Below are positions 7,548-30,239 of a stretch of 64,000 nt of DNA, one piece after another. Positions within the stretch are counted from its first letter, which is position 1. The number at the start of each line of letters is the position of its first letter. Source of the DNA: Sphingobacterium sp. R2 (lineage in GTDB: Bacteria; Bacteroidota; Bacteroidia; Sphingobacteriales; Sphingobacteriaceae); NCBI RefSeq assembly GCF_040760075.1, contig NZ_CP142884.1, positions 3,100,001 through 3,164,000 of the forward strand. Reading direction: 5' to 3'. The position numbers were made by a program, and so were the translations under genes. Under the pieces are notes generated by a model. That model saw only the letters and a program-made list of their open reading frames with translations. It was not told the DNA's origin and did no database searches.

Positions 7548-8447
7548 ATGGCACAATTTAAATGGGAAGGAATTTACCCTGCAATGTTATCTCCATTTGA
7601 TGAAAATGGAAATTTGGATTTTGATATGTTTGGTAAAAACATTGAAGCACAATTGGATGGAGGTGTTCACGGTCTAATTATCGCTGGATCGTTGGGAGAG
7701 GCAAGTGTTTTAAGTACGGAAGAAAAATATGATTTATTGACATATGCGTTGAAACTTGTCGATGGACGTGTACCTGTGTTGCTAAATATTGCAGAAAATA
7801 CAACCGCTGCTGCGATCAAAGTAGCTCAGACCAGTGAAGAGTTGGGCGCAGATGGCTTGATGTTATTGCCACCGATGCGCTATAGAGCAGATGACAGAGA
7901 GGCCGTTGCTTATTTCCGTGCTGTTGCACAAAGCACCAAACTTCCAATTCTAATCTATAATAACCCTGTTGACTATAGTACTTATGTGTCATTGGATATG
8001 TTTGAAGAACTCTTATTAGAACCAAATATTCAGGCGGTGAAAGAGTCTACACGCGATTTGACCAATATCACGCGTTTGAAAAATCGTTTTGGAGATCGAT
8101 TAAAGATTATGGCTGGTGTAGATACATTAGGGCTCGAGTCTTTGATGTTAGGGGCTGATGGTTTAGTTGCTGGACTGGTCGACGCATTTCCAAGAGAAAC
8201 CGTCGTCATGTACGATCTTGTAAAAGCTGGCGAGTACAGTAAAGCTGTAGAAATATACCGGTGGTTTATGCCTTTATTGGAATTGGATATCCATCCTAAA
8301 TTGGTCCAATATATTAAATTGGCGGCGACGGCAGAAGGAATTTCAACACCCTATACACGCGCTCCTCGATTACCATTGATCGGTGAGGAAGAACAACGGG
8401 TGAAGAAAATTATTGCAGATTCAATCGCAACTAGACCACAACTATAG
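7548..8447 (+). CDS. DHDPS-family lyase, probable 1-pyrroline-4-hydroxy-2-carboxylate deaminase
   Basis: A 299-residue (beta/alpha)8 aldolase of the DapA/NAL family. The Schiff-base Lys is K165 (QAVKEST), the assisting Tyr is Y137 (ILIYNNP), and GSLGEA at 48-53 replaces the GTTGE loop of true DapA. The family includes the hydroxyproline-pathway deaminase, which converts pyrroline-4-hydroxy-2-carboxylate to 2-oxoglutarate semialdehyde plus ammonia. The next three genes encode the other hydroxyproline steps, which makes this role far more likely than lysine biosynthesis. A weak hairpin separates it from the dehydrogenase gene, so it may be expressed at a different level from the rest. Confidence 0.83.
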   Translation: MAQFKWEGIYPAMLSPFDENGNLDFDMFGKNIEAQLDGGVHGLIIAGSLGEASVLSTEEKYDLLTYALKLVDGRVPVLLNIAENTTAAAIKVAQTSEELGADGLMLLPPMRYRADDREAVAYFRAVAQSTKLPILIYNNPVDYSTYVSLDMFEELLLEPNIQAVKESTRDLTNITRLKNRFGDRLKIMAGVDTLGLESLMLGADGLVAGLVDAFPRETVVMYDLVKAGEYSKAVEIYRWFMPLLELDIHPKLVQYIKLAATAEGISTPYTRAPRLPLIGEEEQRVKKIIADSIATRPQL

Positions 8448-8458
8448 GGGCTTTTCTG

Positions 8459-8495
8459 AACTTTCTGGAAGAAGGTTTAGAAAGTTTCCTTTTTA
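8459..8495 (+). terminator. Weak hairpin with T-tract after the deaminase gene
   Basis: AACTTTCT (8459-8466) pairs with AGAAAGTT (8479-8486) and is followed by TCCTTTTT. It lies just 12 bases after the stop codon. The stem is short and AT-rich, so partial termination or attenuation within the operon is more likely than a full stop. Confidence 0.45.
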
Positions 8496-8580
8496 GGTCG
8501 GTTAATAATAGACACAAAGAACCTTCTTATTTATATTCAAGTCATAAGGATGAAAATATAGGGAAGGTTTTTATTGATTT

Positions 8581-10071
8581 TTGAAGATACTACTAACAAT
8601 AACAACAAAAGGAATGGATAGAACGGAAAATGATATTGATTACGTCGTAAAACAGGCGGAGGCTGGATATCAGTTTCTTCAGAAAACTGATGTCACTGAA
8701 AGAGCGGAATTAATGTATGCTATTGCCGCTGAGATTGAGGGATTGGGCGAAATATTGATTGAAACAGCTCATCTGGAAACGGCACTTCCTTTGGCAAGGC
8801 TGCAAGGGGAAAAGGCGAGAACTGTCAATCAGTGGCGTAGGTATGCCGATGCCGTCCGCACAGGTTTATACAGTGAAGCTCGGATAGATCGGGATCCAAA
8901 TGGCCAATTTGATTTAAGGAAATATAACAAAGGACTCGGTCCCGTTGTCGTCTTTGGCGCAAGCAACTTTCCTTTTGCTTTTTCAACGGCAGGTGGGGAT
9001 ACAGCAAGTGCCATTGGTGCAGGCTGTTCGGTTATCATAAAAGCGCATCCCGCTCATCTTAAAACCTCGCAATTAATGGCTGACGCTATTGATCGTGCGG
9101 TTTCAAAACAGGGCGTTCCAACTGGTGTTTTTAATCATGTGGTGTCGGATTCTTTTGATACTGGGCAGCAGTTGGTTCGCCATAGCTGTGTGAAAGCGGT
9201 CGCATTTACAGGCTCTTTTCATGGCGGTAAAGCCTTGTTTGATCTTGGACAGTCAAGAACCGATCCTATTCCGGTATTTGCTGAAATGGGGAGCGTAAAT
9301 CCGGTTTTTCTTTTACCGGATTACCTTGCTAACAATCTTGAAGCATTTGCAAAGCAATATATTGCCTCATTACTTTTAGGTGTTGGTCAATTTTGTACCA
9401 ATCCAGGTGTTTTGGTAAGTGTCGCAAGCCAACAGCTGAATCGACTTAAAGCAGAGCTGAAAAAAGAACTTCAAGCTACCGCCACTGGTAAAATGCTGCA
9501 CGCAGGAATTTTGGATAGCTACAACCGTTTAAAAGAGCAAATGATTCAATACGATGGTGTTCGTATATTGGAAGAAGGGCAGGATAATACAGCGCAAGAA
9601 TTTGCGCAGGCAATCCTTCTAGAAACGGACGCAAGTGAAGTTTTGGCTAATCCTAAGTTATTGGATGAAGTCTTTGGACCTTTTGGGCTAATTATATCCT
9701 GTGCGGATCTCAACGAAATGAGACAGGTAATGGAGCAGCTTGCAGGGCAGATAACCATCACTTTCGCGGCATCGACGCATGATATTGGCGAATGTCAGCA
9801 TCTTTTTGCGTTGGCACAGGATAGATGCGGAAGGCTTTTATTCCAGGGTATGCCAACGGGCGTGGAAGTACAATATGCGATGCAGCATGGTGGCCCTTTT
9901 CCAGCAACCACAGATGCGCGTTTCACTTCTGTCGGACCCGATGCCGTAAAGCGTTTCCTCCGACCTTTTAGCTTTCAGAATTGGCCAAATGAATTTTTAC
10001 CTAAAGAATTGCAAGATGGAAATCCATTACAAATTGACCGTTTGGTCAATCAGCAATGGACAAAAGCATAA
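8581..10071 (+). CDS. 2-oxoglutarate semialdehyde (2,5-dioxovalerate) dehydrogenase
   Basis: An aldehyde dehydrogenase of up to 496 residues. The catalytic Glu is E235 (PVFAEMGSVNP) and the nucleophile is C272 (GQFCTNPG). The signatures FGASNFPFAF and the C-terminal TGVEVQYAMQHGGPFPAT typify the alpha-ketoglutaric semialdehyde dehydrogenase branch, which oxidises the product of the preceding gene to 2-oxoglutarate. The frame opens at a TTG (8581); an in-frame ATG at 8614 is the alternative start. Either way the protein lacks the roughly 25-residue N-terminal strand region seen in many family members. It belongs to the hydroxyproline degradation cluster. Confidence 0.87.
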   Translation: MKILLTITTKGMDRTENDIDYVVKQAEAGYQFLQKTDVTERAELMYAIAAEIEGLGEILIETAHLETALPLARLQGEKARTVNQWRRYADAVRTGLYSEARIDRDPNGQFDLRKYNKGLGPVVVFGASNFPFAFSTAGGDTASAIGAGCSVIIKAHPAHLKTSQLMADAIDRAVSKQGVPTGVFNHVVSDSFDTGQQLVRHSCVKAVAFTGSFHGGKALFDLGQSRTDPIPVFAEMGSVNPVFLLPDYLANNLEAFAKQYIASLLLGVGQFCTNPGVLVSVASQQLNRLKAELKKELQATATGKMLHAGILDSYNRLKEQMIQYDGVRILEEGQDNTAQEFAQAILLETDASEVLANPKLLDEVFGPFGLIISCADLNEMRQVMEQLAGQITITFAASTHDIGECQHLFALAQDRCGRLLFQGMPTGVEVQYAMQHGGPFPATTDARFTSVGPDAVKRFLRPFSFQNWPNEFLPKELQDGNPLQIDRLVNQQWTKA

Positions 10072-10109: not shown

Positions 10110-11108
10110 ATGAAGAAAACTTTTTTTTGTATTGATTCGCATACCTGTGGTTGTCCCGTGCGATTGGTAGCCGGGGGAGCCCCGTTATTAGCGGGAAATT
10201 CCATGATGGAGCGCAGATTACATTTTATACGTGACTACGATTGGATCCGTATGGGATTGATGTTTGAGCCAAGAGGGCACGACATGATGAGCGGAAGTAT
10301 GCTTTATCCCCCCTTTGATCCGCAAAATGATATCGGTGTCCTTTACATTGAGACCAGCGGCTGTCTGCCGATGTGTGGACATGGAACGATCGGCACCGTG
10401 ACGATTGCCATTGAGGAGGGGCTCGTTCAACCTAAAGTTCCCGGAAAATTAAGGCTGGAAACTCCGGCTGGACTTGTACATATCGATTATGTTCAAGAGG
10501 GACCTAAGGTGAAAAGTGTAAAGCTTACGAACGTCAAATCCTTTTTATATGCTGAAGCCTTAACGGTCGATTGCCCGGATCTAGGCAACATCAGCGTCGA
10601 TGTGGCCTACGGTGGAAACTTCTACGGTATTATTGATCCGCAGACTAATTTTCAAGATATCAGTTTTTATTCGGCCAGCCAGCTCATTCATTATGGAAAA
10701 ATAATCCGGCAGCTGCTGAACGAAAAATATTCTTTTATTCATCCCGAAGATGCCAATATCCATGGGTTGACACACATCCAATGGACGGGCAATCCAAAGC
10801 TTTCAAATTCATCCGGACGCAATGCGGTACTGGTTGGCGACAATGCATTGGACCGTTCACCATGTGGTACAGGCACATCAGCCCGTATGGCACAGTGGTA
10901 TGCAAAGGGAAAACTCAAAAAAGGAACCGAATTTATACATGAAAGCTATATAGGTTCGCAATTTACCGGTAAAATTGAAGCGGAGACATCCGTGGATGGT
11001 CGGCCGGCTATTGTCCCATCGATCGAAGGATGGGCACGCATAACGGGCTATAATACCATTTTTTTGGATGATGAAGATCCTTATTTTGGCGGTTTTCAGG
11101 TGATTTAA
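10110..11108 (+). CDS. 4-hydroxyproline 2-epimerase (proline racemase family)
   Basis: A 332-residue proline racemase-fold enzyme. Both catalytic cysteines are present: C89 in MCGHGTIG and C252 in DRSPCGTGTSA. Trans-3-hydroxy-L-proline dehydratases have Thr at the first position, so two Cys indicate an epimerase/racemase. With its neighbours the expected reaction is trans-4-hydroxy-L-proline to cis-4-hydroxy-D-proline. It follows the dehydrogenase by 38 bases and precedes the FAD oxidoreductase that would consume its product. Proline racemase activity cannot be excluded by motif alone, but gene context favours hydroxyproline. Confidence 0.9.
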   Translation: MKKTFFCIDSHTCGCPVRLVAGGAPLLAGNSMMERRLHFIRDYDWIRMGLMFEPRGHDMMSGSMLYPPFDPQNDIGVLYIETSGCLPMCGHGTIGTVTIAIEEGLVQPKVPGKLRLETPAGLVHIDYVQEGPKVKSVKLTNVKSFLYAEALTVDCPDLGNISVDVAYGGNFYGIIDPQTNFQDISFYSASQLIHYGKIIRQLLNEKYSFIHPEDANIHGLTHIQWTGNPKLSNSSGRNAVLVGDNALDRSPCGTGTSARMAQWYAKGKLKKGTEFIHESYIGSQFTGKIEAETSVDGRPAIVPSIEGWARITGYNTIFLDDEDPYFGGFQVI

Positions 11109-12444: not shown

Positions 12445-14217
12445 ATGAATCGTTCTTTTTCTTTTAAAGCTTCCAAAACTTTGTTTTATGGACTACTCTT
12501 TCTATTTCCCATCTCCATGCATGCACAGAAGATGAAATTATACGAGCATACAACCCCTATAGAACCTTTTATTGTGCAATATAAGCATGATGTTGAGGCG
12601 ATAAACTATTTTTATGGCCCTATGCCCAAAGGCTGGGGTAATCAGCAGGCTGCCGCTTCGCCCGAACAGTTAGCACGTCTTCAGCGTTTGGATAACGAAT
12701 ATTTGAACAAGCTGGACAAGTTCCCTTATGAAGAACTCGAAACATCGGGGCAGGTCGATTTTATCTTACTGAAGCGCAAACTAAAAAGTGATCTCCTTTC
12801 ATTGAAAGAAGATGAGTCGAATTACAACCGGTTATCTGTGTATTTACCTTTCGCACAGCGAATTTTTGCACTTGAAAAGGAACGCCGTAGGGGGAAGCGT
12901 CTGGCAGGAGAAGATGTCGCGAAAGAGCTGACGCTGGTTGCCGGTGAAATCGATCGGTCAATAGCTGCGCTTCAGGAAAAGACCAACATTCCTTATTCAG
13001 ATGTTAACTTTCTGGTTGCCTTATTAAATTCACTGGACTTAAGGATCACCAGCACCTTCGATTTTTATAATGGATACGACCCTGAATTTACATGGTGGGT
13101 ACCCGCCATATATCAGCAAGTGAAAAGCAAGCTCTCGGATTATAAGGAGAAATTGGCAGCAAAAAGTGATTGGAAAGTGTTTGATGACGGTAGTCAGATT
13201 GCTGGTTGGCCTATTGGGGAAAAAGAGATAAACCGAAGGCTCAAAGCAGAAATGATCAGTTACACCGCTGCCGATCTTTTAAAACTGGCTGATCAAGAGT
13301 TTAAATGGTGTGAGGCCGAGTTATTGAAAGCGAGCCGTGAAATGGGGTTTGGCAATGACTGGCGGGCTGCACAGGAAAAAGTTAAAAACTCCTACGTACC
13401 CATTGGACAACAGCCGGAGCTCATCATGAGATTGTATAACGATGCACAGCAATTTATTGAACAAAATAAACTCATGACTATTCCTGAGCTGGCAGATGAG
13501 ACTTGGGGCATGATCATGATGACACCTGAACGGCAGCGGGTCAATCCCTTTTTTACAGGCGGACGGGAAATTAGCATATCCTATCCGACAAACACGATGG
13601 ATCAGCAGGCGAAACTGATGAGTATGCGTGGCAATAATCCTTATTTCTCCCGTGGCACAGTCCAACATGAATTGATTCCTGGTCATCATCTTCAATATTT
13701 TATGAATAGGCGTTACAAGCCTTACCGCGAAGAGGCATTTAACACGCCATTTTGGACGGAAGGATGGACATTGTACTGGGAATTGCTGCTGTATAGCAAG
13801 GGATTTGCAAAAACTCCGGAGGAGCGAATCGGAATGTTATTTTGGCGCATGCATCGCTGTGCAAGAATAACCTTTAGTATTAAATTTCATTTAGGGGAGT
13901 GGACGCCGCAGCAATGCATCGATTATCTGGTAAACCGCGTGGGATTTGAGTCGGCTAATGCGCACGGTGAAGTAAAGAGATCGTTTGAAGGTTCCTATGA
14001 TCCTCTATATCAGCTGGCCTATCTCGTAGGCGGCTTGCAATTGATGCGTATCAAAGAGGAGGTCGTAGATCAAGGGAAAATGTCATTTGCTGCATTCCAC
14101 GACCGTGTGATCAAAGAAAATTATCTACCGATGGAAATGTTGAGAGCGATTATCAAGGGCGAGAAGTTAACCCCCGATTATGAGACAAACTGGAAGTTTT
14201 ATCATTTTAATAACTAG
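12445..14217 (+). CDS. DUF885-family exported zinc metallopeptidase
   Basis: A 590-residue protein with a signal peptide (hydrophobic LFYGLLFLFPIS, cleavage near HAQ). It belongs to the DUF885 family and carries a zinc-binding HELIPGH motif (H408, E409, H414) with the downstream EGW element (E439) as likely third ligand. Members are thought to be carboxypeptidase-like or oligopeptidases; the true substrate is unknown. It is 29 bases after the D-hydroxyproline dehydrogenase and 6 bases before an amino-acid permease, so it probably releases amino acids or short peptides from proline-rich peptides in the periplasm. The peptide role is inferred from context. Confidence 0.8.
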   Translation: MNRSFSFKASKTLFYGLLFLFPISMHAQKMKLYEHTTPIEPFIVQYKHDVEAINYFYGPMPKGWGNQQAAASPEQLARLQRLDNEYLNKLDKFPYEELETSGQVDFILLKRKLKSDLLSLKEDESNYNRLSVYLPFAQRIFALEKERRRGKRLAGEDVAKELTLVAGEIDRSIAALQEKTNIPYSDVNFLVALLNSLDLRITSTFDFYNGYDPEFTWWVPAIYQQVKSKLSDYKEKLAAKSDWKVFDDGSQIAGWPIGEKEINRRLKAEMISYTAADLLKLADQEFKWCEAELLKASREMGFGNDWRAAQEKVKNSYVPIGQQPELIMRLYNDAQQFIEQNKLMTIPELADETWGMIMMTPERQRVNPFFTGGREISISYPTNTMDQQAKLMSMRGNNPYFSRGTVQHELIPGHHLQYFMNRRYKPYREEAFNTPFWTEGWTLYWELLLYSKGFAKTPEERIGMLFWRMHRCARITFSIKFHLGEWTPQQCIDYLVNRVGFESANAHGEVKRSFEGSYDPLYQLAYLVGGLQLMRIKEEVVDQGKMSFAAFHDRVIKENYLPMEMLRAIIKGEKLTPDYETNWKFYHFNN

Positions 14218-14223: not shown

Positions 14224-15648
14224 ATGAGTGAGTCGAAACAAACTTTTCAAAAGTCTCTCGGGTTACTGGATGCCACTATGCTGGTGGTTGGAAGTATGAT
14301 CGGTTCTGGGATTTTTATTGTATCTGCGGATATTGCGCGCAACACGGGATCTGCAGGCTGGATGATGGTCGTATGGCTGATTTGTGGTTTTATGACTTTG
14401 ACTGCAGCGTTGAGCTATGGAGAATTGAGTGCGATGTTTCCAAAGGCAGGAGGACAATACATTTACCTACGGGAGGCTTATGGGCCAGTGTTGAGTTTTG
14501 TATTTGGCTGGACATTTTTTGCCGTTATACAAACTGCGACTATAGCGGCTGTGGGGGTGGCTTTTGCTAAATTTACAGCCTATCTCTTCCCTTCTATGGA
14601 TGAAGATGTTTACCTGCTAGAATGGTCAGATTATCGGGTATCGGCAGCGCAACTGCTGGCAATTGCCGTCATTATTGTATTAACCTATATTAATTCAAGA
14701 GGCGTAAATAGCGGAAAGCGCGTACAGACATCCATCACATTGATCAAGATCGGGAGTCTGCTGCTCTTGTTGCTCTTTGGATTCCTGGCTTTGAAACATG
14801 AAGTTTGGACTTTGAACTGGGACAATATATCACTTTGGTCAATGCGCCGTTTAAATACGGATGGAACGTACACATCTTATGATGGATTTTCAGCAATGGG
14901 CGCTTTTTCTGCGGCTATGGTCGGTGCACTCTTCAGCAGCGATTCCTGGCACTCATCTTCCGCTGTAGCTGGCGAAATTAAAAATCCACAACGTAATATC
15001 GGGTTGAGTCTAGCATTAGGGACTTTACTGGTTACCGTAATCTATCTCCTGACTAATTTGATGTACACCGGCATTTTGCCTTTGGAAGCTATGGTCAATG
15101 CACCAAAAGATCGTGTAGCCATGAGTGTCGCACAAGAAGTTTTTGGCCCTTTTGGGATTACTATTATAGCCATTATGATCATGATCAGCACATTTGGTTG
15201 CAATAATGGGATTATCCTGGCAGGAGCGAGGGTGTATTATTCTATGGCCAAAGATGGTTTGTTTTTTAAAAGGGCGGGTAAGCTCAATGCGCATGCGGTA
15301 CCTGCCTGGGCACTCTGGATACAATGTGTTGCTGCGTCAATATGGTGTTTAAGCGGAAAATATGGTGATTTATTGGACATGATTACCTGTGTGGTCGTTA
15401 TATTTTATGTACTCGCGATTGCGGGTATTATTCGTCTCCGTATCACACGTCCAGATTTGAACAGACCCTATAAAGCATTTGGCTATCCTTTTCTTCCCAT
15501 TCTTTACATTCTGATGGGACTTGCCTTTATTGGGTTGATGGTTATTTTTAAACCCAACTATACCTGGCCCGGCATTATCATTGCACTATTGGGTATCCCG
15601 ATCTATTATTTAATCAATCCTAAGCGAAGAAAGCATGAAGTTTCTTAG
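14224..15648 (+). CDS. APC-superfamily amino-acid permease
   Basis: A 474-residue inner-membrane transporter with about 12 hydrophobic helices. The TM1 signature VVGSMIGSGIFIVSADIARN contains the GSGIF loop that binds the amino-acid backbone in the APC superfamily, and the TM6 region has SSDSWHSSSAVAGEIKNPQRN. It resembles the LAT/serine-threonine exchanger branch in general layout. Position inside the hydroxyproline/peptidase operon suggests uptake of hydroxyproline, proline or related amino acids. The last 14 bases overlap the following peptidase gene, indicating translational coupling. Confidence 0.87.
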   Translation: MSESKQTFQKSLGLLDATMLVVGSMIGSGIFIVSADIARNTGSAGWMMVVWLICGFMTLTAALSYGELSAMFPKAGGQYIYLREAYGPVLSFVFGWTFFAVIQTATIAAVGVAFAKFTAYLFPSMDEDVYLLEWSDYRVSAAQLLAIAVIIVLTYINSRGVNSGKRVQTSITLIKIGSLLLLLLFGFLALKHEVWTLNWDNISLWSMRRLNTDGTYTSYDGFSAMGAFSAAMVGALFSSDSWHSSSAVAGEIKNPQRNIGLSLALGTLLVTVIYLLTNLMYTGILPLEAMVNAPKDRVAMSVAQEVFGPFGITIIAIMIMISTFGCNNGIILAGARVYYSMAKDGLFFKRAGKLNAHAVPAWALWIQCVAASIWCLSGKYGDLLDMITCVVVIFYVLAIAGIIRLRITRPDLNRPYKAFGYPFLPILYILMGLAFIGLMVIFKPNYTWPGIIIALLGIPIYYLINPKRRKHEVS

Positions 15649-21989: not shown

Positions 21990-22069
21990 TTGTTTATCTA
22001 TTTGAGCGTTGTCCCTAAAGTGATCTAAGTTCACTTTTCGGGTTCATTGCTATGTCCGTTATCTGTTTT

Positions 22070-23458
22070 TTAATTAATTGGATTGTCTTTAAGCTGATAT
22101 ATTTCCTGTAATTCACGTTCAAGGTATTTTCCCAAACGGCGATATCCATCTGTTTCAATAAGATAATTATCTTCAATACGAACCCCGCCGAAATCGAGAT
22201 GTTTTTTTAAGAAATCATAATTGATAAAGTCTTTGTGTAAATTTTGCTGTTCCCAAAGCTGCGTTAATTCCGGGATAATATAGATGCCGGGTTCAACGGT
22301 TAGCACATTGCCAGCCTCCAATTTCTTACCTAGCCGCAGTGATTTGATTCCAAAAGTCTTGGTCTCTTTTGGCTCAGCTTCGGTATAACCTACATATTGT
22401 TCACCAAGATCCTCCATATCATGCACATCAAGACCGAGCATATGGCCAAGTCCACATTGAAAGAAAAGCGCATGCGCGTGATTCATGACCGCATCTTGCG
22501 CGTTGCCTTTCATAAATCCGGTTTGGATAAGTCCGTCTACAAGTGCTTCACAGGCTTTTAGATGTATTTCTTTAAAACGTATTCCGGATGTCAGCAGCTG
22601 TTCAGCAGATTTAAAAGAATGTAAAACAATCTGATAAATTTCTTCTTGCAAACCTGTAAATCGTTTTCCTACAGGAAAGGTTCTGGTTAGATCAGAAGCA
22701 TATCCCATAGCAGTTTCAACGCCGGAATCATTGAGGAGAATATTACCTTCATCAAGTTGGTGAAATTGCATATGATTGTGCAGAATTTCACCTCGTTTTG
22801 TAACTATCGGAGGATAGGAAAATGGGGCTCCTTGATCTTGCGCAAAATGTTGCATAGCATTGCTGATCTGATATTCATAACAACCAGGTTTTGTCATTCG
22901 CATAGCTATGCGATGCATATCGACAGCGATATCTACCGCCTTTTCTAGTTCAGCGATCTCTTCTTCCGATTTGATGCTACGTTGAGCAACCACGGCTTTA
23001 ATTAAAGCGACCGAAGGTTCTAACTGACTGACAGATCGGCCAGTTATTTGTTGAAGTAATAATTTGTTGTGCGATTGATAAGGAGGAAGGTAGTGAATTC
23101 CTGCTGGCGTTTTCTTGTTAAGATAGTCGAAGAGTTGATTGAATGGGAGGACTGTACGAATACCCGACAGTTCTGCTTTTTCCGCTAAAGTTTGCTGCTG
23201 GCCCATCCACACAATATCGTCGATCGTCATTTCGTCCCCAAATAGGATAGTCTCATTTTTTTCAATATCCAATACAGCAGCCAAACCTGGACTTTTTATT
23301 CCTATATAATATAAAAAGCTGCTGTCCTGACGAAAAGGATAGGTGTTGTGCTCAAAATTAATCGGGTTTTCAATGTTGCCTAACAAAAGAATTTTGCCAG
23401 AACTGACGGATGATAACAGTTTATTTCGGCGGTGAAGATATATTTCTTTTTTGAACAT
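22070..23458 (-). CDS. Xaa-Pro aminopeptidase (M24B, PepP-like)
   Basis: A 462-residue cytoplasmic pita-bread metallopeptidase without a signal peptide. An N-terminal aminopeptidase-P domain (residues 1-150) precedes the catalytic domain; the dinuclear-metal ligands D244, D256, H339, E389 and E429 are all identifiable (NDSG, SDLTRTF, GLGHMLGLDVHD, VEPGIYI, GVRIEDNYL). Aminopeptidase P removes the residue before proline, so with two DPP IV paralogues and the hydroxyproline pathway it forms a consistent set for proline-rich peptides. It is the first gene of the reverse operon. Confidence 0.92.
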   Translation of the reverse strand: MFKKEIYLHRRNKLLSSVSSGKILLLGNIENPINFEHNTYPFRQDSSFLYYIGIKSPGLAAVLDIEKNETILFGDEMTIDDIVWMGQQQTLAEKAELSGIRTVLPFNQLFDYLNKKTPAGIHYLPPYQSHNKLLLQQITGRSVSQLEPSVALIKAVVAQRSIKSEEEIAELEKAVDIAVDMHRIAMRMTKPGCYEYQISNAMQHFAQDQGAPFSYPPIVTKRGEILHNHMQFHQLDEGNILLNDSGVETAMGYASDLTRTFPVGKRFTGLQEEIYQIVLHSFKSAEQLLTSGIRFKEIHLKACEALVDGLIQTGFMKGNAQDAVMNHAHALFFQCGLGHMLGLDVHDMEDLGEQYVGYTEAEPKETKTFGIKSLRLGKKLEAGNVLTVEPGIYIIPELTQLWEQQNLHKDFINYDFLKKHLDFGGVRIEDNYLIETDGYRRLGKYLERELQEIYQLKDNPIN

Positions 23459-23962
23459 AAATTTTGGAAATTTTAGAATGTAATGCTTTTTATTTTGTTA
23501 AAGCCATAGATTTTTGAAATACTTGTGATTTGCAATTGGCTTGCCCCTTAGATGTAAATTGTCGAATACGAATATCGTAAAATTTAAGCGCTTCAAAACG
23601 ATTTATTTAAGAGGTTTATCTTTGATAGTGCAATTTTTGCTATTGTTACAAACGAATAAGATTCATTTTTATACACTTTAAAGAATCAAAAATGAAATTT
23701 AATAAAGTTCTATGTTTCTGTGGAATTCTAATTATCACAATTTATCAAAGTCTAATTGTATTTTAACCCATTTTTTTAATATTAAAACGTTTTTAATAAC
23801 AATTATACTTTTCTTTAGAAGATTTGTTAAGGATTATTAAATATTGTCGGATTCTAAACATATTTTAGTATTGTAATTTTAAGAACAAACTAAATAGATT
23901 GTTGTTGCTTTGCAGTTGCTATATTTATGTTAACTAAACAGTAACATAAACTAAACATACCT
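23459..23962. other. Divergent intergenic region between pepP and araC genes
   Basis: About 500 bases, very AT-rich, with no credible gene. On the plus strand TATCTTTG (23617-23624) matches a -7 box without a clear -33. Nearer to the AraC gene, TTG, 18 bases, TATATTTA ends about 40 bases before the start at 23963 and is a better candidate. I found no convincing minus-strand promoter for the pepP operon, which fits activator-dependent expression. Confidence 0.4.
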
Positions 23963-24847
23963 ATGAAAACGCTCCAATTTAATGTTCCTACCATGCGAGG
24001 CCAAAGCCTTACTATTCAAGAAGATGTTTTGGAAAATTTCTACCCTCATTTTCATCGACATCAAGAAGCTCAATTAATGTGGATAAAAAAAGGCAAAGGA
24101 GTTTTGATTGTTGAAGATACCTTACACCCCTTTAAGGAAAATGATATTTTCTTTTTGGGTGCAAACCAACCGCATGTGTTTAAATCGGTCTCTCAGGAAG
24201 GTTTTTCAAATGAATCTCGCTCTGTTTCCATTTTTTTCGATCCAAACGGAAAGCTTAAATCCCTGTTTTCCCTGGACGAATTTGAATCGCTGCATCAATT
24301 TATCTGTAGTAACTCCAGAGGATTTAAAGTCCCCGAACCTTATTTTGACCAGATATCACAACGAGTTTGTCAGTTGAAATCTGCGGATCAAATGGACATG
24401 TTGATGCATTTTTTTTATCTATTGAGAACGTTAGCAAATATTTCAAGGGGCGCCGATGCGCTTTGTAACGAGCGTGTGGAAGCAGGCTTTGAAACAGTGC
24501 ATGGATCAAATCGCATTCATTTTATCTGCAACTATATCAGAGAACATTATAGAGATGAACTGACGTTGGAAGAAGTTGCTGATCACGCCAATCTTACGCC
24601 ACAAGCTTTTTGTCGCTATTTTAAAAAGCATTGTGGGGTTACATTTGTCACTTATCTTAATCGCATAAGGGTCAAAGAAGTGTGTAACCAGTTAAATGAA
24701 GACCACTTGGACAGTGTTTCGTTTATTGCCTACAACTGTGGCTTCAATAGCATTACCAACTTTAATCGCGTATTTAAACAAATCGTCGGCTGCAATCCAA
24801 AAGAGTATGTCCAGCAGTACAAACAAACGCTATATGCTATGATCTAA
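23963..24847 (+). CDS. AraC-family transcriptional regulator with cupin sensor domain
   Basis: A 294-residue regulator. The N-terminal cupin (residues 20-100; FYPHFHRHQEAQLMWIKKG) is the ligand-binding domain, and residues about 190-290 hold two helix-turn-helix motifs (LTLEEVADHANLTPQAFCRYFKK and VSFIAYNCGFNSITNFNRVFKQ with the FKQIVGCNPKEY ending). It stands between the peptidase operon and a SusC/SusD pair and is the only regulator in 7.5-30.2 kb, so it probably controls both in response to an amino acid or peptide signal. The ligand is unknown; hydroxyproline or proline is an inference. Confidence 0.9.
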   Translation: MKTLQFNVPTMRGQSLTIQEDVLENFYPHFHRHQEAQLMWIKKGKGVLIVEDTLHPFKENDIFFLGANQPHVFKSVSQEGFSNESRSVSIFFDPNGKLKSLFSLDEFESLHQFICSNSRGFKVPEPYFDQISQRVCQLKSADQMDMLMHFFYLLRTLANISRGADALCNERVEAGFETVHGSNRIHFICNYIREHYRDELTLEEVADHANLTPQAFCRYFKKHCGVTFVTYLNRIRVKEVCNQLNEDHLDSVSFIAYNCGFNSITNFNRVFKQIVGCNPKEYVQQYKQTLYAMI

Positions 24848-25437
24848 TGTTAGTCGAAAAGACAGGATGAAGGATATTTAAGCTATTAAATATTCTTCTA
24901 TTTGCTCGCTTTGATTAGATAGCTATTAAAATCCAACGGTACTAAAATCTCATTAAATTGAAATGCTAAAGTTCTATTTAATGGGATTTTCAGCTTCTTA
25001 TTGATCTATCTATTTCGTAAGGAACGCATGTAGTTTACAAATTTGATGGTAGCAATTAGTCGTCTCTACCTATTGTTTTTTAAAAAAAAATATTATTTTC
25101 TTTCTTAAAAATCTTCAAAGAAGTAAAGTTTTTATTTTTTTTTGTTGTTTTCTTTGAAAAATAGCTTGTGAGATTAATGTGTTTTAATGTGCTCTAGTAA
25201 ATCTGTGCTTTTATTAGTTGTTTTATATAAGGAAAAAGCTATTTAATGCCTTTTGGAGTGTCTTTTTTGGGATATGTAAGTGGTACGGAGCTTTTTTTGT
25301 TGCGAACATGTTAGTTATTTAACACTTTGGGTTAAAAATCGGGTAATAATGATCAATATTCGGTTATCAATGCAGACTAAGTACCCCTAACTTAGTTTTT
25401 ATAAAAACACTAAAAACTAACATCTGAAACTAAACTT
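24848..25437. other. Long leader region upstream of the susC-like gene
   Basis: About 590 AT-rich bases without a gene. Contains the 15-base-pair hairpin at 24944-24990 (listed separately) and a short inverted repeat ACTAAG-N9-CTTAGT at about 25376-25396, 40 bases before the SusC start, which could be an operator. No good TAnnTTTG box was found on the plus strand, consistent with activation by the adjacent AraC protein. Confidence 0.4.
24944..24990 (+). terminator. Hairpin downstream of the AraC gene
   Basis: AAAATCTCATTAAAT (24944-24958) pairs with ATTTAATGGGATTTT (24976-24990), 14 Watson-Crick pairs and one wobble, with a 17-base loop. It lies about 100 bases after the araC stop. It may end the regulator transcript or act in the long region before susC; there is no clear T-run after it. 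Confidence 0.45.
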
Positions 25438-28400
25438 ATGAACAGAAGAAGCATTGCTATGCTAGCCGCTACCGTTTTGGTAAGCTCGGCGGTATATGCG
25501 CAAACAGTTTTAAAGGGGAAGGTGGTCGACCAAGACGGAAAGCCAATACCCGGAGTTACACTGACACTCAAGGACGGAACAGCGACACAAACAGGACAAA
25601 ACGGCGAGTTTACGATTAACTACAAGCAGGCAGGGACTTTAAGCGTTTCGGCTATCGGTTATGGTCGTAAAGAAGTGAATTTAACCAATCAGAGTACAAT
25701 TCAGGTTACATTAACGACCGATGAGCGCAGTTTGGACGAAGTTGTGGTAACTGCGATGGGCATTACCCGGGAAAAAAAATCGTTAGGATATGCGACTCAG
25801 GAATTGAAAGCTGCAGTTTTGACTGACGCAGGAGCAAACAGTTTAACAGGAGCTTTGGCGGGTAAGGCTGCTGGTGTCCAAGTAAACCAATTTGGTGGAG
25901 CAATAGGATCCTCAGCTCGTATTTCCATTCGGGGAAACTCTTCTCTGCAGGCAGATCAACAGCCGTTAATTGTTGTCGATGGAGTGCCAATTACAAATAA
26001 TGCGCAACGTTCGGGTGATAATACCTACTCTGGGGTGGATTATGGTTCGGGATTAAATGATATTAATCCGGATGATATCGAAAGTATCAATATTCTGAAA
26101 GGTGGAGCTGCTGCACTTTATGGTATGCGTGCCGGTACAGGCGTTATTATGATTACAACGAAATCGGGAAAGCGGGCGGAGAATGGAGTACAAATATCCT
26201 ATGATGGAAATTTTTCCATTGATCGAGCAGCTAATTTACCCAAATATCAAAATTTATATGGCCAAGGTTCCAGAGGGGATGAATACAGTTATAAAATTAA
26301 TGGCGCTGGCATGTCGTATCAGGATTATGTATTGAAGAAATCATTTAGTTATGTTGATGGGACAGGAAGTTTTGGTACAAATGACAATATAGATGAATCC
26401 TGGGGAGCAAGATTGGATATCGGATTAAAGGTTCCTCAATTTAATAGTCCTGTCAATAATGGGGTGCGCGAAGCTACTGATTGGATTTCCCATAAAAATA
26501 ACGTTAAGGATTTTTTTCAGACAGGTTTTTCCCAAAATCACAACGTTTCTTTACTTTCAAAAACAGATCGTTCATCCACGAGAGCTTCCATTTCTTTTCG
26601 TGATCAACGCGGAACAGTGCCCAATACCGATCAAAAGAAATATACGGCACAAATAAATAATAATTATAAAATCAGTGATAAAGTTTCATATGATATTATG
26701 AGTAATTTCACACGTACTGAAAGTAATAACTTAGTCACGCAAGGTTACGACGGTGCCAATCCAATGAATGGCTTGATTTGGTTCGGCCGCCAGGTAGATA
26801 TGCAAGACCTGAAGAATAATTGGGATCAGGTAGATGAGCAGGGTAACTATACCTATTACAATTGGAATTCCGTGTACCATATGAATCCTTACTTCACGAT
26901 GAATAAATCGCAAAATGCCTTGAAGATAAATCGTGTATTTGGAAAGACATCTTTATACTATCAACCTTTTGATTTCTTAAAATTTGAAGGTCGAGTCGGC
27001 TTAGATTATTATAATACGAATATATTTGAAACCACCTATTTTAACTATGACAATAAAAACGGTAAATTCAATCAAATAAAAAATAGTAATTCTGAATTTA
27101 ATGCCGATTTTATTGCAAACTTTAATAAACAATTTGGCGATTTAAGTTTGACGGGAATTTTAGGCGCCAACTATCGGGATTATCAATATGAAACCAACAC
27201 CTTGGGTGCTAAGGGGCTAAATGTGTTAGGGGTTTATACCATTACCAATAAAATTGGAGATGCTTATACCGTTATGGACCATTCGAAAGGCCGGTCAAAT
27301 TCTGTTTATGCACAGGCTAGTTTAGGCTGGCGTGACGAATTATATCTGGATTTGACAGCGCGGAATGATTGGTCTTCAACCTTGACGAAATCCTTCTTTT
27401 ACCCTTCGGCGAGTTTAAGCTGGCTGCCAACAGCAAGTTTTGAAGGGCTAAAAAGTGATTATTTAAATTTCTGGAAATTGCGCTTAAATGTAGTTAAGGT
27501 TGGTAATGCAACGCGTCCGTATCAAAACGGAAATTACTACTATGCGCAGACCGATTCCTATAATAATTTAGCGCAGATGTATAAGAGCATGACGTATGCA
27601 ATTGAGGGCTTAGAACCCGAAGCAATTACTTCATACGAAATCGGAACGGAGCTGGGCTTATTCAAAGATCGCTTACATCTTGATTTTACTTATTATAATA
27701 AAACAAATAAAAACCAACTACTTCAAGTATCCACATCCAATGTGGTGGGTTTTAGTTCGATATTCCTAAACGCTGGTGAAATTAAAAGCAAAGGCGTTGA
27801 ATTGCAATTAAGAGGCGATATCCTCAAAGGTGGTGACGGTTTGAATTGGACAACAACAGTTAATTTTTCTAAAGACAATAATTTAGTTGTTGAACTATAT
27901 CCACAATTGGATTTAAAAGATTATAGGCTTGGCTGGACTTGGGGGATCTCCAATATGGCATCTGTTGGAAAGCCATGGGGCACTTTAGTCGGATCTGGTT
28001 TTGATCGTGTTGAAGACGGACCAATGAAAGGAGCAATTAAAATTGGAAAAGAAGGAACAATTGCTAATTCTTTAGATGCTCAAGATATCGGTAACGTGGT
28101 ACCTGATTTCTTGGCTTCTATGCGAAATGATTTTACCATCAAGGATTTTAGATTTGGCTTTATGCTTGATTTTCGAAAAGGTGGCGATATTTGGTCTCAA
28201 ACAATGGCGCATGGGTATAATACAGGGATAGCATCAATTACCGCAGCAGATGGAATTCGTGAACGTGCTATTTTGGCAGGTAGAGATGTAATGAAAAATG
28301 AACGCTTTGCTATGTCGGACGGAAATAATGGATGGATAGAAAACACCATTGAAACTAATGCACAAGACTGGTATGAAAATAATAGCATTGCAGAAACATT

Positions 28401-28671
28401 TGTTTTTGATGGTTCATTCTTAAAGTTGAGAGAAGCTTATATATCCTATAATTTACCAAAAACTTTATACAGCAGAATAAAAGGGATAAAACGCGCAAGT
28501 GTTTCAGTTACCGGGACAAATTTAGCGCTTTTATGGGTGCACAAAAGCAATACGATGCGCTTGGATCCGGAAGGAGGTGGTGTATCAAGTGATTCAAGAG
28601 GAGTTGGTTTTGAACAAGCAGGCGTGCCAAATTCAAGAAGTATAGGTCTTAAACTGGGTTTTACATTTTAA
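25438..28671 (+). CDS. SusC/RagA-family TonB-dependent outer-membrane transporter
   Basis: A 1077-residue transporter. A signal peptide (cleavage near VYAQ) is followed by a carboxypeptidase-regulatory-like domain (residues 24-95), a TonB-box-like EVVVTAMG segment, the plug (LTGALAGKAAGVQVNQFGG to IMITTKSGK) and a 22-strand barrel ending in an aromatic GLKLGFTF. It is 47 bases upstream of a SusD partner. Such pairs import oligosaccharides or, as in RagAB, oligopeptides. Because all surrounding enzymes act on proline-rich peptides, peptide import is more likely here than glycan import; no glycoside hydrolase is nearby. Confidence 0.92.
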   Translation: MNRRSIAMLAATVLVSSAVYAQTVLKGKVVDQDGKPIPGVTLTLKDGTATQTGQNGEFTINYKQAGTLSVSAIGYGRKEVNLTNQSTIQVTLTTDERSLDEVVVTAMGITREKKSLGYATQELKAAVLTDAGANSLTGALAGKAAGVQVNQFGGAIGSSARISIRGNSSLQADQQPLIVVDGVPITNNAQRSGDNTYSGVDYGSGLNDINPDDIESINILKGGAAALYGMRAGTGVIMITTKSGKRAENGVQISYDGNFSIDRAANLPKYQNLYGQGSRGDEYSYKINGAGMSYQDYVLKKSFSYVDGTGSFGTNDNIDESWGARLDIGLKVPQFNSPVNNGVREATDWISHKNNVKDFFQTGFSQNHNVSLLSKTDRSSTRASISFRDQRGTVPNTDQKKYTAQINNNYKISDKVSYDIMSNFTRTESNNLVTQGYDGANPMNGLIWFGRQVDMQDLKNNWDQVDEQGNYTYYNWNSVYHMNPYFTMNKSQNALKINRVFGKTSLYYQPFDFLKFEGRVGLDYYNTNIFETTYFNYDNKNGKFNQIKNSNSEFNADFIANFNKQFGDLSLTGILGANYRDYQYETNTLGAKGLNVLGVYTITNKIGDAYTVMDHSKGRSNSVYAQASLGWRDELYLDLTARNDWSSTLTKSFFYPSASLSWLPTASFEGLKSDYLNFWKLRLNVVKVGNATRPYQNGNYYYAQTDSYNNLAQMYKSMTYAIEGLEPEAITSYEIGTELGLFKDRLHLDFTYYNKTNKNQLLQVSTSNVVGFSSIFLNAGEIKSKGVELQLRGDILKGGDGLNWTTTVNFSKDNNLVVELYPQLDLKDYRLGWTWGISNMASVGKPWGTLVGSGFDRVEDGPMKGAIKIGKEGTIANSLDAQDIGNVVPDFLASMRNDFTIKDFRFGFMLDFRKGGDIWSQTMAHGYNTGIASITAADGIRERAILAGRDVMKNERFAMSDGNNGWIENTIETNAQDWYENNSIAETFVFDGSFLKLREAYISYNLPKTLYSRIKGIKRASVSVTGTNLALLWVHKSNTMRLDPEGGGVSSDSRGVGFEQAGVPNSRSIGLKLGFTF

Positions 28672-28718
28672 TTTTTAAAGATATTTTGAAACTTGAAAAT
28701 CGAAAACCAAAAAAAAAT

Positions 28719-30239
28719 ATGAATATGAATGCTTTAATAAAAAAACTAAAATATACACCTATCCTAGTCGCTCTTTTAGTATCTGGATGTACCAAGAATT
28801 TTGAAAAAATAAATACAGATCCGGACGCTTTACACGATGTTCCTCCTCAAAATATGTTGGTGAATGTGATGCGCTATGCCGGAGACCAATTCGGTGGCGA
28901 TGTAGATGGCTATGGTACCTTTGCCGGCTATATTGTTAAAATTCAATATCCGGACGATTTAAGCGGGTTAACACCTTCGAATAATACGTATGGAAATCGT
29001 TGGGCAGCCTGTTATTATAATATTACCCAAATGCTTGATTTGTTGAAAAAAACGGAAAAAAATGCTGAAGGGTATAAAAATACCCGCCTCATTGCCAGAA
29101 TATGGAATAATTATATGTGGTCGTATTTATTGGACGGTTGGGGAGATATTCCATACTCAGAAGCATTTCAAGGACGTCCCGAGGATGGCTCGATCTTGAA
29201 AGCCAAATATGATAAACAGGAAGATATCTTCCCTGCAGTATTGGCCGACCTTAAATCAATTGCGGATGAAATGGCGGCAGGGATAGGGACGGATGAAATG
29301 GGGGATTATGATGTGATCTATGGAAAAACCAATAGTGGAAGTGCGGATATAAAGGAGCAAATGCTAAGGTGGCAAAAATTCTGTAACGCGTTGCGCTTAC
29401 GGATGGCCATGCGTATTTCTTCTGTTGCGCCAGCATTAGCTAAATCGACTATTGAGGAAATTGCCGGTAATAAAGAGAAATATCCTGTTATTGAAACAAA
29501 TGCAGAAAGTTGCCAAATGTTTTTCCCTGGCACCTTACCTTATATGGAACCCTGGTATGAATCCGGCATTTACGGTAGTCGTATTAACAATTGGGGAATG
29601 TTTGATATTTTTATCAATCATTTATTAGAGACCAAAGATCCACGTATAGCAGCCATTGCACAAAAGAATAACGCAGGTAAGTATATAGGATTTATAAATG
29701 GTTCAAAAGACAATCCGTCGCCAGCAACCTCAATCTCTTGGATTGGTCTACATTATATTAATGATCCTGCCGGAGCAGTACCCTTCTTTAAAGCCTGTGA
29801 AACCTACTATATTTTAGCGGAAGCAGCTTTATTAGGATATAATGTAGGGTCGCTCACAGCGAAGGATGCGTATGAAAAAGCCGTTACACTTTCGATGGAA
29901 GATAATAACGTAGCAGCAAGTGATGTAGCAAATTACTTGGCTGGTGAGGGTAAGTTTAACAATACCAAAGAACGTGTTTATTGGGATATGTGGGTGGCTT
30001 TATTTAAAGAGAATTATGAAGCTTGGAGCTTATATCGCCGTACGGGTATTCCAAATACAAACTATCCTTCGCTAATTCAGAAGTTTAAAGAACCTCACAC
30101 CGATCAGCCGTTCCGTTTACCGTATCCAAATAATGAATATTTGTATAATGCAGAAAATGTTAAAGCTGCAGCGGCTGGAACAGTCGATTACAATTGGGGT
30201 AAGCGGTTATGGTGGGCTAAAGATAATGGCAAAAAATAG
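28719..30239 (+). CDS. SusD/RagB-family surface lipoprotein
   Basis: About 506 residues from the ATG at 28719 (an in-frame TTG at 28686 would add 11 charged residues before the signal peptide and is less likely). The signal peptide ends in the lipobox VSGC, giving a lipid-anchored protein. The sequence NFEKINTDPDALHDVPPQ and the C-terminal WWAKDNGKK match the SusD-like family with nutrient-binding role (SusD-like_2 type). It caps the SusC barrel encoded just upstream and captures substrate on the cell surface. Followed by a strong terminator. Confidence 0.9.
   Translation: MNMNALIKKLKYTPILVALLVSGCTKNFEKINTDPDALHDVPPQNMLVNVMRYAGDQFGGDVDGYGTFAGYIVKIQYPDDLSGLTPSNNTYGNRWAACYYNITQMLDLLKKTEKNAEGYKNTRLIARIWNNYMWSYLLDGWGDIPYSEAFQGRPEDGSILKAKYDKQEDIFPAVLADLKSIADEMAAGIGTDEMGDYDVIYGKTNSGSADIKEQMLRWQKFCNALRLRMAMRISSVAPALAKSTIEEIAGNKEKYPVIETNAESCQMFFPGTLPYMEPWYESGIYGSRINNWGMFDIFINHLLETKDPRIAAIAQKNNAGKYIGFINGSKDNPSPATSISWIGLHYINDPAGAVPFFKACETYYILAEAALLGYNVGSLTAKDAYEKAVTLSMEDNNVAASDVANYLAGEGKFNNTKERVYWDMWVALFKENYEAWSLYRRTGIPNTNYPSLIQKFKEPHTDQPFRLPYPNNEYLYNAENVKAAAAGTVDYNWGKRLWWAKDNGKK

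What the first reader, a model, noticed from the sequence alone, without database searches (positions are those of the whole stretch)
7548..30239. Complete hydroxyproline pathway joined to proline-specific peptidases, AraC regulator and SusCD: a collagen-peptide utilisation locus
All four steps from trans-4-hydroxy-L-proline to 2-oxoglutarate are encoded (epimerase with C89/C252, D-amino-acid dehydrogenase, DHDPS-type deaminase, semialdehyde dehydrogenase). Alongside are an APC permease, DUF885 peptidase, two DPP IV paralogues, a short M1 peptidase, aminopeptidase P, one AraC regulator and a SusC/SusD pair. Hydroxyproline is largely a collagen-type marker, and DPP IV and aminopeptidase P act at proline. 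Together they form a peptide equivalent of a polysaccharide utilisation locus, with outer-membrane import, trimming and catabolism in one place.
Basis: partly seen in the sequence, partly recalled or inferred. Interest (0 to 1): 0.75.

Follow-up and report, generated by a model that had tools for sequence, protein, structure and literature searches.

The report
Hydroxyproline-peptide uptake and breakdown regulon
A Sphingobacterium carries one jointly controlled set of genes that appears to import hydroxyproline-containing peptides, trim them and burn the hydroxyproline; partner genes elsewhere in its chromosome suggest that the peptides come from plant cell-wall glycoproteins rather than from animal collagen.

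Summary
The genes are as described: DHDPS-type deaminase, KGSA-type dehydrogenase, hydroxyproline epimerase (C89/C252), D-amino-acid dehydrogenase, DUF885, APC permease, S9 peptidase; convergent M1, DPP IV and aminopeptidase P; then AraC and SusCD. One correction: only 19815-22034 has DPP IV's double-Glu motif. The three transcription units look like one regulon. A tandem operator model (half-sites 21 bp apart), learned only from deaminase promoters outside the window's clade and run over the whole window, ranks three sites first: the SusC, deaminase and aminopeptidase P promoters. It also marks SusCD where SusCD lies far from the pathway. "Collagen" is not supported: a LamG-GH146-type beta-L-arabinofuranosidase is present in 44 of 46 epimerase-positive and 1 of 34 epimerase-negative Sphingobacterium genomes, and the operator precedes 5 of 15 such genes and 15 of 29 DUF5695 genes (p<=0.01). 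DUF5695's model best matches the lyase BACCELL_00875 (recalled as an arabinogalactan-protein enzyme). I read the locus as the peptide-and-hydroxyproline arm of a plant hydroxyproline-rich glycoprotein regulon (confidence 0.6; collagen 0.2). The parts are known kinds; the combination is a new variant. No expression, binding or enzyme data.

The parts
7456..7492 (+). predicted operator of the hydroxyproline operon, 92 bp upstream of the deaminase start
   Evidence: score 25.1 with the out-of-clade tandem model, second best in the whole window; conserved in 12 aligned loci, some of one genome; R1 genome hit E 1e-4 (this site is in R1's training set)
7548..8447 (+). DHDPS-family protein, predicted 1-pyrroline-4-hydroxy-2-carboxylate deaminase
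   Evidence: PF00701 5.6e-63; below the dapA and nanA cut-offs; AVKES and IYNNP motifs
8581..10071 (+). aldehyde dehydrogenase, predicted 2-oxoglutarate semialdehyde dehydrogenase
   Evidence: PF00171; closest solved 1eyy and 3v4c over nearly the full length; GQFC and AEMG motifs
10110..11108 (+). 4-hydroxyproline 2-epimerase, Cys89/Cys252
   Evidence: NF010578 568 bits, cut-off 376; only match in the genome
11150..12415 (+). FAD D-amino-acid dehydrogenase, predicted cis-4-hydroxy-D-proline dehydrogenase
   Evidence: PF01266 1.9e-66; NF001933 250 bits, below its cut-off 383
12445..14217 (+). DUF885 protein with signal-like N-terminus and HELIPGH motif, putative exported zinc peptidase
   Evidence: PF05960; motif; solved homologues uncharacterised; where the gene lies away from the pathway (L251, L255) an operator precedes it
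14224..15648 (+). APC-family amino-acid permease
   Evidence: PF13520 1.8e-63
15635..17866 (+). exported S9 serine peptidase (S9a), DPP IV-like domains but no double-Glu motif
   Evidence: PF00930 + PF00326; best solved match 2d5l; 0 of 63 orthologous frames with the motif
18119..19792 (-). short exported M1-family peptidase, HESGHEW...HESF
   Evidence: PF01433 4e-16; motifs; weak ERAP1-type matches
19815..22034 (-). exported dipeptidyl peptidase IV (S9b)
   Evidence: 5olj dipeptidyl peptidase IV 320 bits; EEEFG and S/D/H motifs
22070..23458 (-). M24 peptidase with AMP_N domain, Xaa-Pro aminopeptidase type, no signal peptide seen
   Evidence: PF00557 + PF05195; five metal-ligand motifs; no full-length paralogue in the genome
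23731..23767 (-). predicted operator of the M24-S9b-M1 unit, in the region divergent to AraC
   Evidence: score 20.5 with the out-of-clade tandem model, third best in the whole window; R1 genome hit E 1.5e-3 (in R1's training set)
23963..24847 (+). AraC-family regulator with cupin-type N-terminus
   Evidence: PF12833, PF07883, PF02311; 21-row starred clade, all Sphingobacterium
25331..25367 (+). predicted operator of SusCD, two half-sites 21 bp apart
   Evidence: best score in the whole window, 26.0; conserved in 22 aligned loci; R1 E 3e-6 (in R1's training set)
25438..28671 (+). SusC-type TonB-dependent transporter
   Evidence: TIGR04056 597 bits; closest solved BT_2264 338 bits, RagA 119
28686..30239 (+). 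SusD-type lipoprotein (PF12771)
   Evidence: PF12771 1.8e-67; closest solved are mixed-linkage glucan binders at 101 bits, BT_2263 at 75

Best explanation
A single AraC-type regulon for hydroxyproline-containing peptides, most likely those of plant hydroxyproline-rich glycoproteins (arabinogalactan proteins, extensins). Inferred route: exported glycan enzymes encoded elsewhere in the same genome (LamG-GH146, DUF5695) strip the arabinose-rich glycans; SusCD imports the peptides; periplasmic S9b (DPP IV), M1, S9a and DUF885 trim them; the APC permease takes up the products; cytoplasmic M24 frees the last Xaa-Pro/Hyp bonds; HypE, DadA, the DHDPS-type deaminase and the ALDH turn trans-4-hydroxy-L-proline into 2-oxoglutarate. 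AraC binds tandem half-sites 21 bp apart before DHDPS, M24 and SusC and induces all three units, with hydroxyproline, a pathway intermediate or a Hyp peptide as the signal. Shown here: gene content and residues, the operators and their conservation, presence of the operator at partners that lie elsewhere, co-occurrence. Inferred: AraC as the binder, the inducer, transport substrate, enzyme activities and the plant source.
For: Pathway and residues. Held-out operator test: motif found from random starts in 48 deaminase promoters outside the clade; the three best sites of a 38-row tandem model in 64 kb are the three promoters (26.0, 25.1, 20.5; next 12.0). A second site at +21 bp is the best lag in the SusC, DHDPS and M24 sets (z 3.5, 5.0, 4.1 over 60 lags). 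SusC promoters 22 of 23 at p<=0.01 with the held-out model; controls ALDH 0 of 39, APC 0 of 27, FabF 0 of 6, DadA 0 of 53, HypE 1 of 75. SusC promoters away from the pathway score 9.7 to 29.1 in 11 loci. DUF5695 15 of 29 and LamG-GH146 5 of 15 promoters at p<=0.01. Own genome: four profile sites at E<0.01, three of them here. Plant source: GH146-type protein with ExC and CC motifs, in 44 of 46 versus 1 of 34 genomes; GH146 includes Araf-Hyp hydrolases (PMC10850190 passages); DUF5695 model best matches BACCELL_00875 (Foldseek E 2e-22; Z 26.4).
Against: No expression, binding or enzyme data. Presence of AraC and of the site do not match fully: of 80 named loci, 62 of 68 with an AraC and 7 of 12 without one in the fetched stretch have a DHDPS site scoring 20 or more. 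The one-box 16-bp pattern is not enriched genome-wide (53 in G000, 57 for the reversed control). The profile R1 was trained on 31 sites that include the three window sites and SusC sites of relatives, so one search is not held out. Two SusC promoters (L005, L130, one genome) score only 3.2 with the held-out model. M24 is the weakest set (14 of 37 regions at p<=0.05, single site). The co-occurrence is not corrected for phylogeny. GH146 also includes a pectic-arabinan enzyme; 8 of 15 LamG-GH146 promoters show no site at p<=0.05, and own-genome scores of 10.0 (DUF5695) and 7.0 (second LamG-GH146) are reached by 11 and 21 of 637,030 own-genome positions. Two of the 15 DUF5695 sites are the DHDPS operator of a shared region (L009, L157). 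DUF5695: 14% identity, mean pLDDT 70.8; a shared fold shows no function; that BACCELL_00875 acts on arabinogalactan protein is recalled. In the Chryseobacterium and Elizabethkingia loci neither partner was found.
Confidence: 0.6

Rival explanations
1. Collagen or gelatin peptides are the substrate: SusCD imports collagen fragments, DPP IV and aminopeptidase P cut at Gly-Pro and Pro-Hyp, and the pathway burns the hydroxyproline.
For: Complete pathway, DPP IV, Xaa-Pro aminopeptidase and a SusC closest to BT_2264 under one operator; the core occurs without the glycan enzymes nearby in Chryseobacterium and Elizabethkingia loci.
Against: Operator and co-occurrence tie the regulon to a GH146-type beta-L-arabinofuranosidase and DUF5695 in Sphingobacterium. 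No collagenase is among the 26 of 55 listed window ORFs scanned here; collagenases in the rest of the genome were not searched, so this counts for little.
Confidence: 0.2
2. A general scavenging regulon for free hydroxyproline and Pro/Hyp dipeptides from any source; the glycan enzymes merely share habitat or serve pectic arabinan under the same regulator family.
For: The solved SusD-like proteins closest to this one are glucan binders; GH146 includes the pectin-locus enzyme BT0349 (PMC10850190 passages); a second AraC of the sister clade with a strong site lies beside another SusCD in the same genome.
Against: LamG-GH146 is present in 44 of 46 epimerase-positive but 1 of 34 epimerase-negative genomes and lies next to S9a or SusCD in many of the fetched Sphingobacterium loci.
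Confidence: 0.17
3. The three units are neighbours by chance or old synteny, with separate control; SusCD belongs to another system.
For: SusCD and the peptidase block occur apart from the hydroxyproline operon in other species; only 3 of 80 named loci have a SusC of 40% identity or more in the fetched stretch.
Against: Held-out operator test; SusCD pairs away from the pathway keep the operator; SusD orthologue (59% identity or more) in 31 of 46 epimerase-positive and 1 of 34 negative genomes.
Confidence: 0.03

Closest known systems
trans-4-hydroxy-L-proline operons with 4HypE, DAAO, DHDPS and ALDH members (PMC4113996, passages)
   Same: the four enzyme families and the route to 2-oxoglutarate
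   Different: here joined to prolyl peptidases, SusCD and an AraC operator system; that paper's main text holds 0 occurrences of AraC and collagen and 'Bacteroid' only in a reference
SusCD oligopeptide importers BT2263-BT2264 and RagAB; peptide loci such as F. collinsii TRV642_0198-0209 with S9, S37, M24 and M43 peptidases (PMC10132118, passages)
   Same: SusCD next to S9 and M24 peptidases; SusC closest to BT_2264
   Different: 0 occurrences of hydroxyproline in that main text; no hydroxyproline pathway described
Bifidobacterium longum HypBA1/HypBA2/HypAA cluster for plant hydroxyproline-rich glycoproteins (PMC7263609 and PMC10850190, passages)
   Same: beta-L-arabinofuranosidase for Hyp-linked arabinose
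   Different: takes the sugar through an ABC importer; the passages seen describe no use of the protein part; here the peptide and hydroxyproline arm is present and appears co-regulated
Latescibacteria glycoprotein degradation, in silico (PMC4454575, passages)
   Same: GH127 proposed to act on Hyp-arabinosides of extensins
   Different: genome inventory; no regulon or hydroxyproline catabolic operon in the passages seen
polysaccharide utilisation locus
   Same: SusCD, regulator and degradative enzymes in one locus
   Different: peptidases and amino-acid catabolism instead of glycosidases in the locus; the glycan enzymes lie elsewhere in this genome

Membership tests
4-hydroxyproline 2-epimerase | curated family score and Cys/Cys catalytic pair | tested here: met
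   568 bits, cut-off 376; C89 and C252
4-hydroxyproline 2-epimerase | substrate-site residues of HypE, not proline racemase (sites from PMC4364671) | tested here: inconclusive
   site 1 Ser and site 4 His as HypE; site 5 Val, neither class; positions found by offset from the catalytic motifs
4-hydroxyproline 2-epimerase | epimerises trans-4-hydroxy-L-proline | not testable with these tools
   needs an enzyme assay
DPP IV, 19815-22034 | S9 triad motifs and double-Glu motif | tested here: met
   GWSGGG, DDNVH, RSHS, EEEFG (motifs recalled)
DPP IV, 15635-17866 | double-Glu motif | tested here: not met
   absent in the protein and in 63 of 63 orthologous frames; gap at that loop in the alignment to 2d5l
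Xaa-Pro aminopeptidase (M24 with AMP_N) | AMP_N plus M24 domain and five metal-ligand motifs | tested here: met
   PF05195 + PF00557; DSG, SDLTRT, GLGHMLGLDVHD, VEPGIYI, RIEDN; but below the NCBIfam equivalog cut-offs
oligopeptide SusCD (BT2263-64 type) | closest solved SusC and SusD are an oligopeptide pair | tested here: inconclusive
   SusC yes (BT_2264 338 bits); SusD no (glucan binders first, BT_2263 75 bits)
oligopeptide SusCD (BT2263-64 type) | binds peptides | not testable with these tools
   needs binding data or a structure
AraC-regulated regulon | tandem direct half-sites about 21 bp apart at each promoter (spacing recalled) | tested here: met
   best lag +21 in three promoter sets; both half-sites at 21 bp in the window SusC and M24 promoters, the second half-site of DHDPS weak
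AraC-regulated regulon | the linked AraC binds these sites | not testable with these tools
   EMSA or DAP-seq needed; co-presence is imperfect
GH127/GH146 beta-L-arabinofuranosidase (LamG partner protein) | catalytic domain and ExC plus CC zinc-ligand motifs (PMC10850190 passages) | tested here: met
   PF07944; motifs in 6 of 6 proteins read, both own copies included
GH146 rather than GH127 (LamG partner protein) | closer to GH146 than to GH127 structures | tested here: inconclusive
   5opj 226, 8k7x 140, 6ex6 74, 4qjy (GH127) 56, 3wre 43 bits; that 5opj and 8k7x are GH146 is recalled
BACCELL_00875-type lyase (DUF5695) | same fold over both domains | tested here: inconclusive
   Foldseek E 2.1e-22 (first other protein 5.6e-6), TM 0.44/0.57, 14% identity; VIA Z 26.4, rmsd 7.5 over 599 residues; model pLDDT 70.8
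BACCELL_00875-type lyase (DUF5695) | catalytic residues | not tested
   paper not held

The most novel reading that the evidence does not exclude
Sphingobacterium has a dedicated regulon for whole plant hydroxyproline-rich glycoproteins: glycan removal (LamG-GH146, and DUF5695 as an unrecognised lyase or hydrolase family for arabinogalactan-protein glycans), peptide import by SusCD, trimming and full oxidation of the hydroxyproline backbone, all under one AraC operator that keeps its members together by regulation even when they are scattered over the chromosome.
Probability: 0.45. Interest if true: 0.78.

Novelty: new variant of a known kind. Interest (0 to 1): 0.62.

Why it matters
If true, the protein part of plant cell-wall glycoproteins, not only their sugars, has a dedicated bacterial utilisation system. 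The operator gives a ready handle: it can predict the regulon in related Bacteroidota genomes, puts SusCD pairs into a peptide regulon without linkage, and gives a testable context to DUF885 and DUF5695, both named as of unknown function. It also warns against reading hydroxyproline catabolism as a sign of collagen use.

Tried and rejected
Single 16-bp pattern genome-wide: not more frequent than its reversed control (53 against 57 in G000), so one box alone cannot predict the regulon. Of its 53 own-genome sites I fetched regions around 20; with the in-clade tandem model the two best regions scored 14.4 and 12.4 and the rest 8.0 or less. A first random-start motif search found the conserved end of the AraC coding region instead of a promoter motif, because 300 bp reached into it; it was repeated with 130 bp. 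Epimerase active mainly on proline: disfavoured by the family scores. Chance neighbourhood: disfavoured. The upstream kinase and RND efflux genes (267-7178; AcrB in 3 of 80 named loci) and FabF (3 of 80) are not conserved partners, and no comparable site lies before them. Matches other than BACCELL_00875 in the DUF5695 fold lists (phosphorylases, complement-type and rhamnogalacturonan-lyase helical domains) are much weaker; families absent from those lists are not excluded.

No search for collagenases in the genome was made. Ten paper searches (open-licence library only, judged by title and start of abstract) listed no paper on a Bacteroidota locus that joins hydroxyproline catabolism to SusCD, or hydroxyproline epimerase to extensin; the library lacks most subscription journals. 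A GntR-type regulator of hydroxyproline use in Streptomyces is in the listing (PMC6608401, listing only).

Rows dropped before counts: promoter regions sharing 35% or more of their 10-mers with a kept one, regions cut by locus ends, and matches that start late in the protein. Several named loci and G-genome loci are the same genomes, so locus counts are not genome counts. The co-occurrence uses E<=0.001 for the epimerase (one positive, G202, has a broken copy), E<=1e-200 for LamG-GH146 and 59% identity or more for SusD.

Full report
What is there. The window lies at 3.10-3.16 Mb of a single-contig 5.35-Mb genome of a Sphingobacterium; among named genomes the epimerase is closest to that of S. 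siyangense (97%). The epimerase passes the curated 4-hydroxyproline epimerase cut-off (568 against 376 bits) and not that of proline racemase. C89 and C252 are as stated; of the discriminating sites described in PMC4364671 (passages), site 1 is Ser and site 4 His as in HypE, and site 5 is Val, as in neither class. The ALDH is closest to the solved enzymes 1eyy and 3v4c, a class I recall as including the hydroxyproline-type KGSA dehydrogenase. One statement needs correction: only S9b (19815-22034) carries the DPP IV double-Glu motif (57 of 59 orthologous frames); S9a (15635-17866) lacks it (0 of 63; loci, not genomes).

Anatomy and location. DUF885, S9a, S9b, M1, SusC and SusD have signal-like N-termini (SusD with a lipobox), while M24 and the pathway enzymes show none (judged by eye). 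This fits outer-membrane import, periplasmic trimming, inner-membrane uptake and cytoplasmic completion. SusC is closest to BT_2264 (338 bits; RagA 119), of a pair reported to import oligopeptides (PMC10132118 passages). SusD is not specially close to BT_2263 (75 bits, behind glucan binders at 101).

Neighbourhood conservation. In 80 named loci fetched by the epimerase with flanks of up to 10 kb, at 40% identity or more, DHDPS is present in 80, ALDH in 79, DadA in 75, at least one of the five peptidases in 70 and at least two in 62, S9b with M24 in 38, SusC in 3 and SusD in 2; an AraC match of any identity is present in 68. Most Chryseobacterium and Elizabethkingia loci keep S9b and M24 divergent to AraC-DHDPS-ALDH-HypE-DadA. 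S. alkalisoli has M1-S9b-M24 divergent to AraC and the whole pathway operon through S9a (L042); the window order is a circular permutation of that, with SusCD in the place after AraC. SusCD also lies before AraC in S. paludis, S. deserti and relatives, and stands away from the pathway in others. In L112, L113 and L127 the peptidase-AraC-SusCD block exists without the pathway, which sits elsewhere in those genomes, in two of the three with an AraC of a sister clade beside it (L146, L155). So the parts are modular.

The operator. Aligned promoters showed conserved blocks before DHDPS (12 loci) and SusC (22 loci). A 16-bp matrix trained only on 63 non-redundant DHDPS promoters marked 23 of 24 SusC promoters at p<=0.05 (20 at 0.01), against ALDH 0 of 56, FabF 0 of 7, HypE 1 of 73, M1 1 of 13 and S9a 1 of 26 at p<=0.05; that one S9a is in a genome that has lost the pathway genes, so that S9a follows AraC. 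It marked 35 of 60 AraC and 14 of 37 M24 upstream regions. A second site is best at +21 bp in the SusC, DHDPS and M24 sets (z 3.5, 5.0, 4.1), the spacing I recall for AraC half-sites. The cleanest test is: the motif was found from 120 random starts in 48 promoters of deaminases under 77% identical to the window's, with no SusC or M24 promoter used; a 37-bp tandem model made from 38 of them was run over both strands of the 64-kb window. The three best sites are 25331-25367 (SusC, 26.0), 7456-7492 (DHDPS, 25.1) and 23731-23767 minus strand (M24, 20.5); the fourth is 12.0. Upstream of SusC the same model scores above 9 in 30 of 32 loci; the two exceptions (3.2) are one genome. Presence of AraC and site agree only in part: 62 of 68 named loci with an AraC, and 7 of 12 without one in the fetched stretch, have a DHDPS site of 20 or more; in four of those seven the window-type AraC would lie beyond the stretch, judging by the window's own order.

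Genome scale. A sequence profile of 31 such sites, the three window sites and sites of relatives included, finds four sites at E<0.01 in the 5.35-Mb genome: SusC, DHDPS, M24, and one beside a second AraC at 2.68 Mb. In G244 and G234 the SusCD pair is not near the pathway, yet its promoter is one of the four sites at E<0.01 in each genome. DUF885-APC-S9a, the distal part of the window operon, lies elsewhere in G234 and G244 and about 35 kb away in Olivibacter domesticus; sites of 35.6, 36.7 and 16.1 precede it, in G244 in front of a second deaminase gene that comes first. Against this, a single-box pattern is no more frequent than its control.

What the partners say about the substrate. These displaced copies led to two further candidates: a LamG protein with a GH127/GH146-type catalytic domain, and DUF5695. 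The LamG protein (65% identity or more) lies in 10 of the 80 named loci and DUF5695 (62% or more) in 25 of 80, none of them Chryseobacterium or Elizabethkingia. With the held-out model DUF5695 promoters score at p<=0.01 in 15 of 29 cases (two of these are the DHDPS operator of a shared region) and LamG-GH146 promoters in 5 of 15. The own-genome copies, none in the window, score 16.2 and 7.0 (LamG-GH146) and 10.0 (DUF5695, half-sites 21 bp apart); of 637,030 own-genome positions scanned, 7, 21 and 11 reach those scores, so the first is good and the other two are only suggestive. The LamG protein's best solved matches are 5opj and 8k7x, which I recall as GH146, ahead of GH127, and the ExC and CC motifs are kept in 6 of 6 copies read. 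GH146 includes enzymes that remove arabinose from hydroxyproline of plant glycoproteins and also a pectic-arabinan enzyme (PMC10850190 passages; see also PMC4454575 and PMC7263609 passages). Across 80 Sphingobacterium genomes it is present in 44 of 46 with HypE and 1 of 34 without (Fisher 6e-19, not corrected for phylogeny); in 20 of the 44 it lies within 20 kb of HypE on the same contig and in 24, the window's genome included, it does not. The one positive without HypE, G237, lacks the pathway but keeps SusCD, AraC, S9a and both partners. The DUF5695 model (pLDDT 70.8) matches BACCELL_00875 well above the rest; I recall that enzyme as a lyase of arabinogalactan-protein side chains, and could not read the paper. 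In the own genome DUF5695 is next to a GH43-LamG protein, another SusCD and a fucosidase.

Verdict. The collagen reading is not: in this genus the regulon's partners point to plant hydroxyproline-rich glycoproteins. The parts are known kinds and the combination is a new variant. What remains inferred is the binder, the inducer, the transported peptide and the source.

Noticed in passing
L168 11347-12329 (own genome C1:2.678 Mb): A second AraC of the sister clade has a strong tandem operator in front of it and is followed by another SusCD pair; possibly a paralogous regulon with the same or a similar site.
   Followed up: partly
L136 (G237): A genome without the hydroxyproline pathway genes that keeps SusCD, AraC, S9a, DUF5695 and LamG-GH146, so that S9a now follows the operator.
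   Followed up: partly
L144 (G202): The epimerase reads as two pieces, so this copy is broken or the assembly has an error.
   Followed up: no
G000 and G243, at least once in G226 (capped list): One 16-bp sequence, a direct repeat of GGTTA with 11-bp spacing, recurs at many places; perhaps the site of another regulator or a repeat.
   Followed up: no
L256 5367-5403 minus strand (own genome C1:5.244 Mb): Tandem operator score 20.9 within or just before a reading frame upstream of another SusC-like gene; profile E 0.06.
   Followed up: no
window 42118-50627: A separate locus with a BglX-type GH3 and a SusD-like gene beside a large ORF, probably SusC (not scanned); no strong operator of this type there.
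   Followed up: no
L259 8756-9649: Another AraC-family gene divergent to the own-genome LamG-GH146 gene, with an amidohydrolase beside it.
   Followed up: partly
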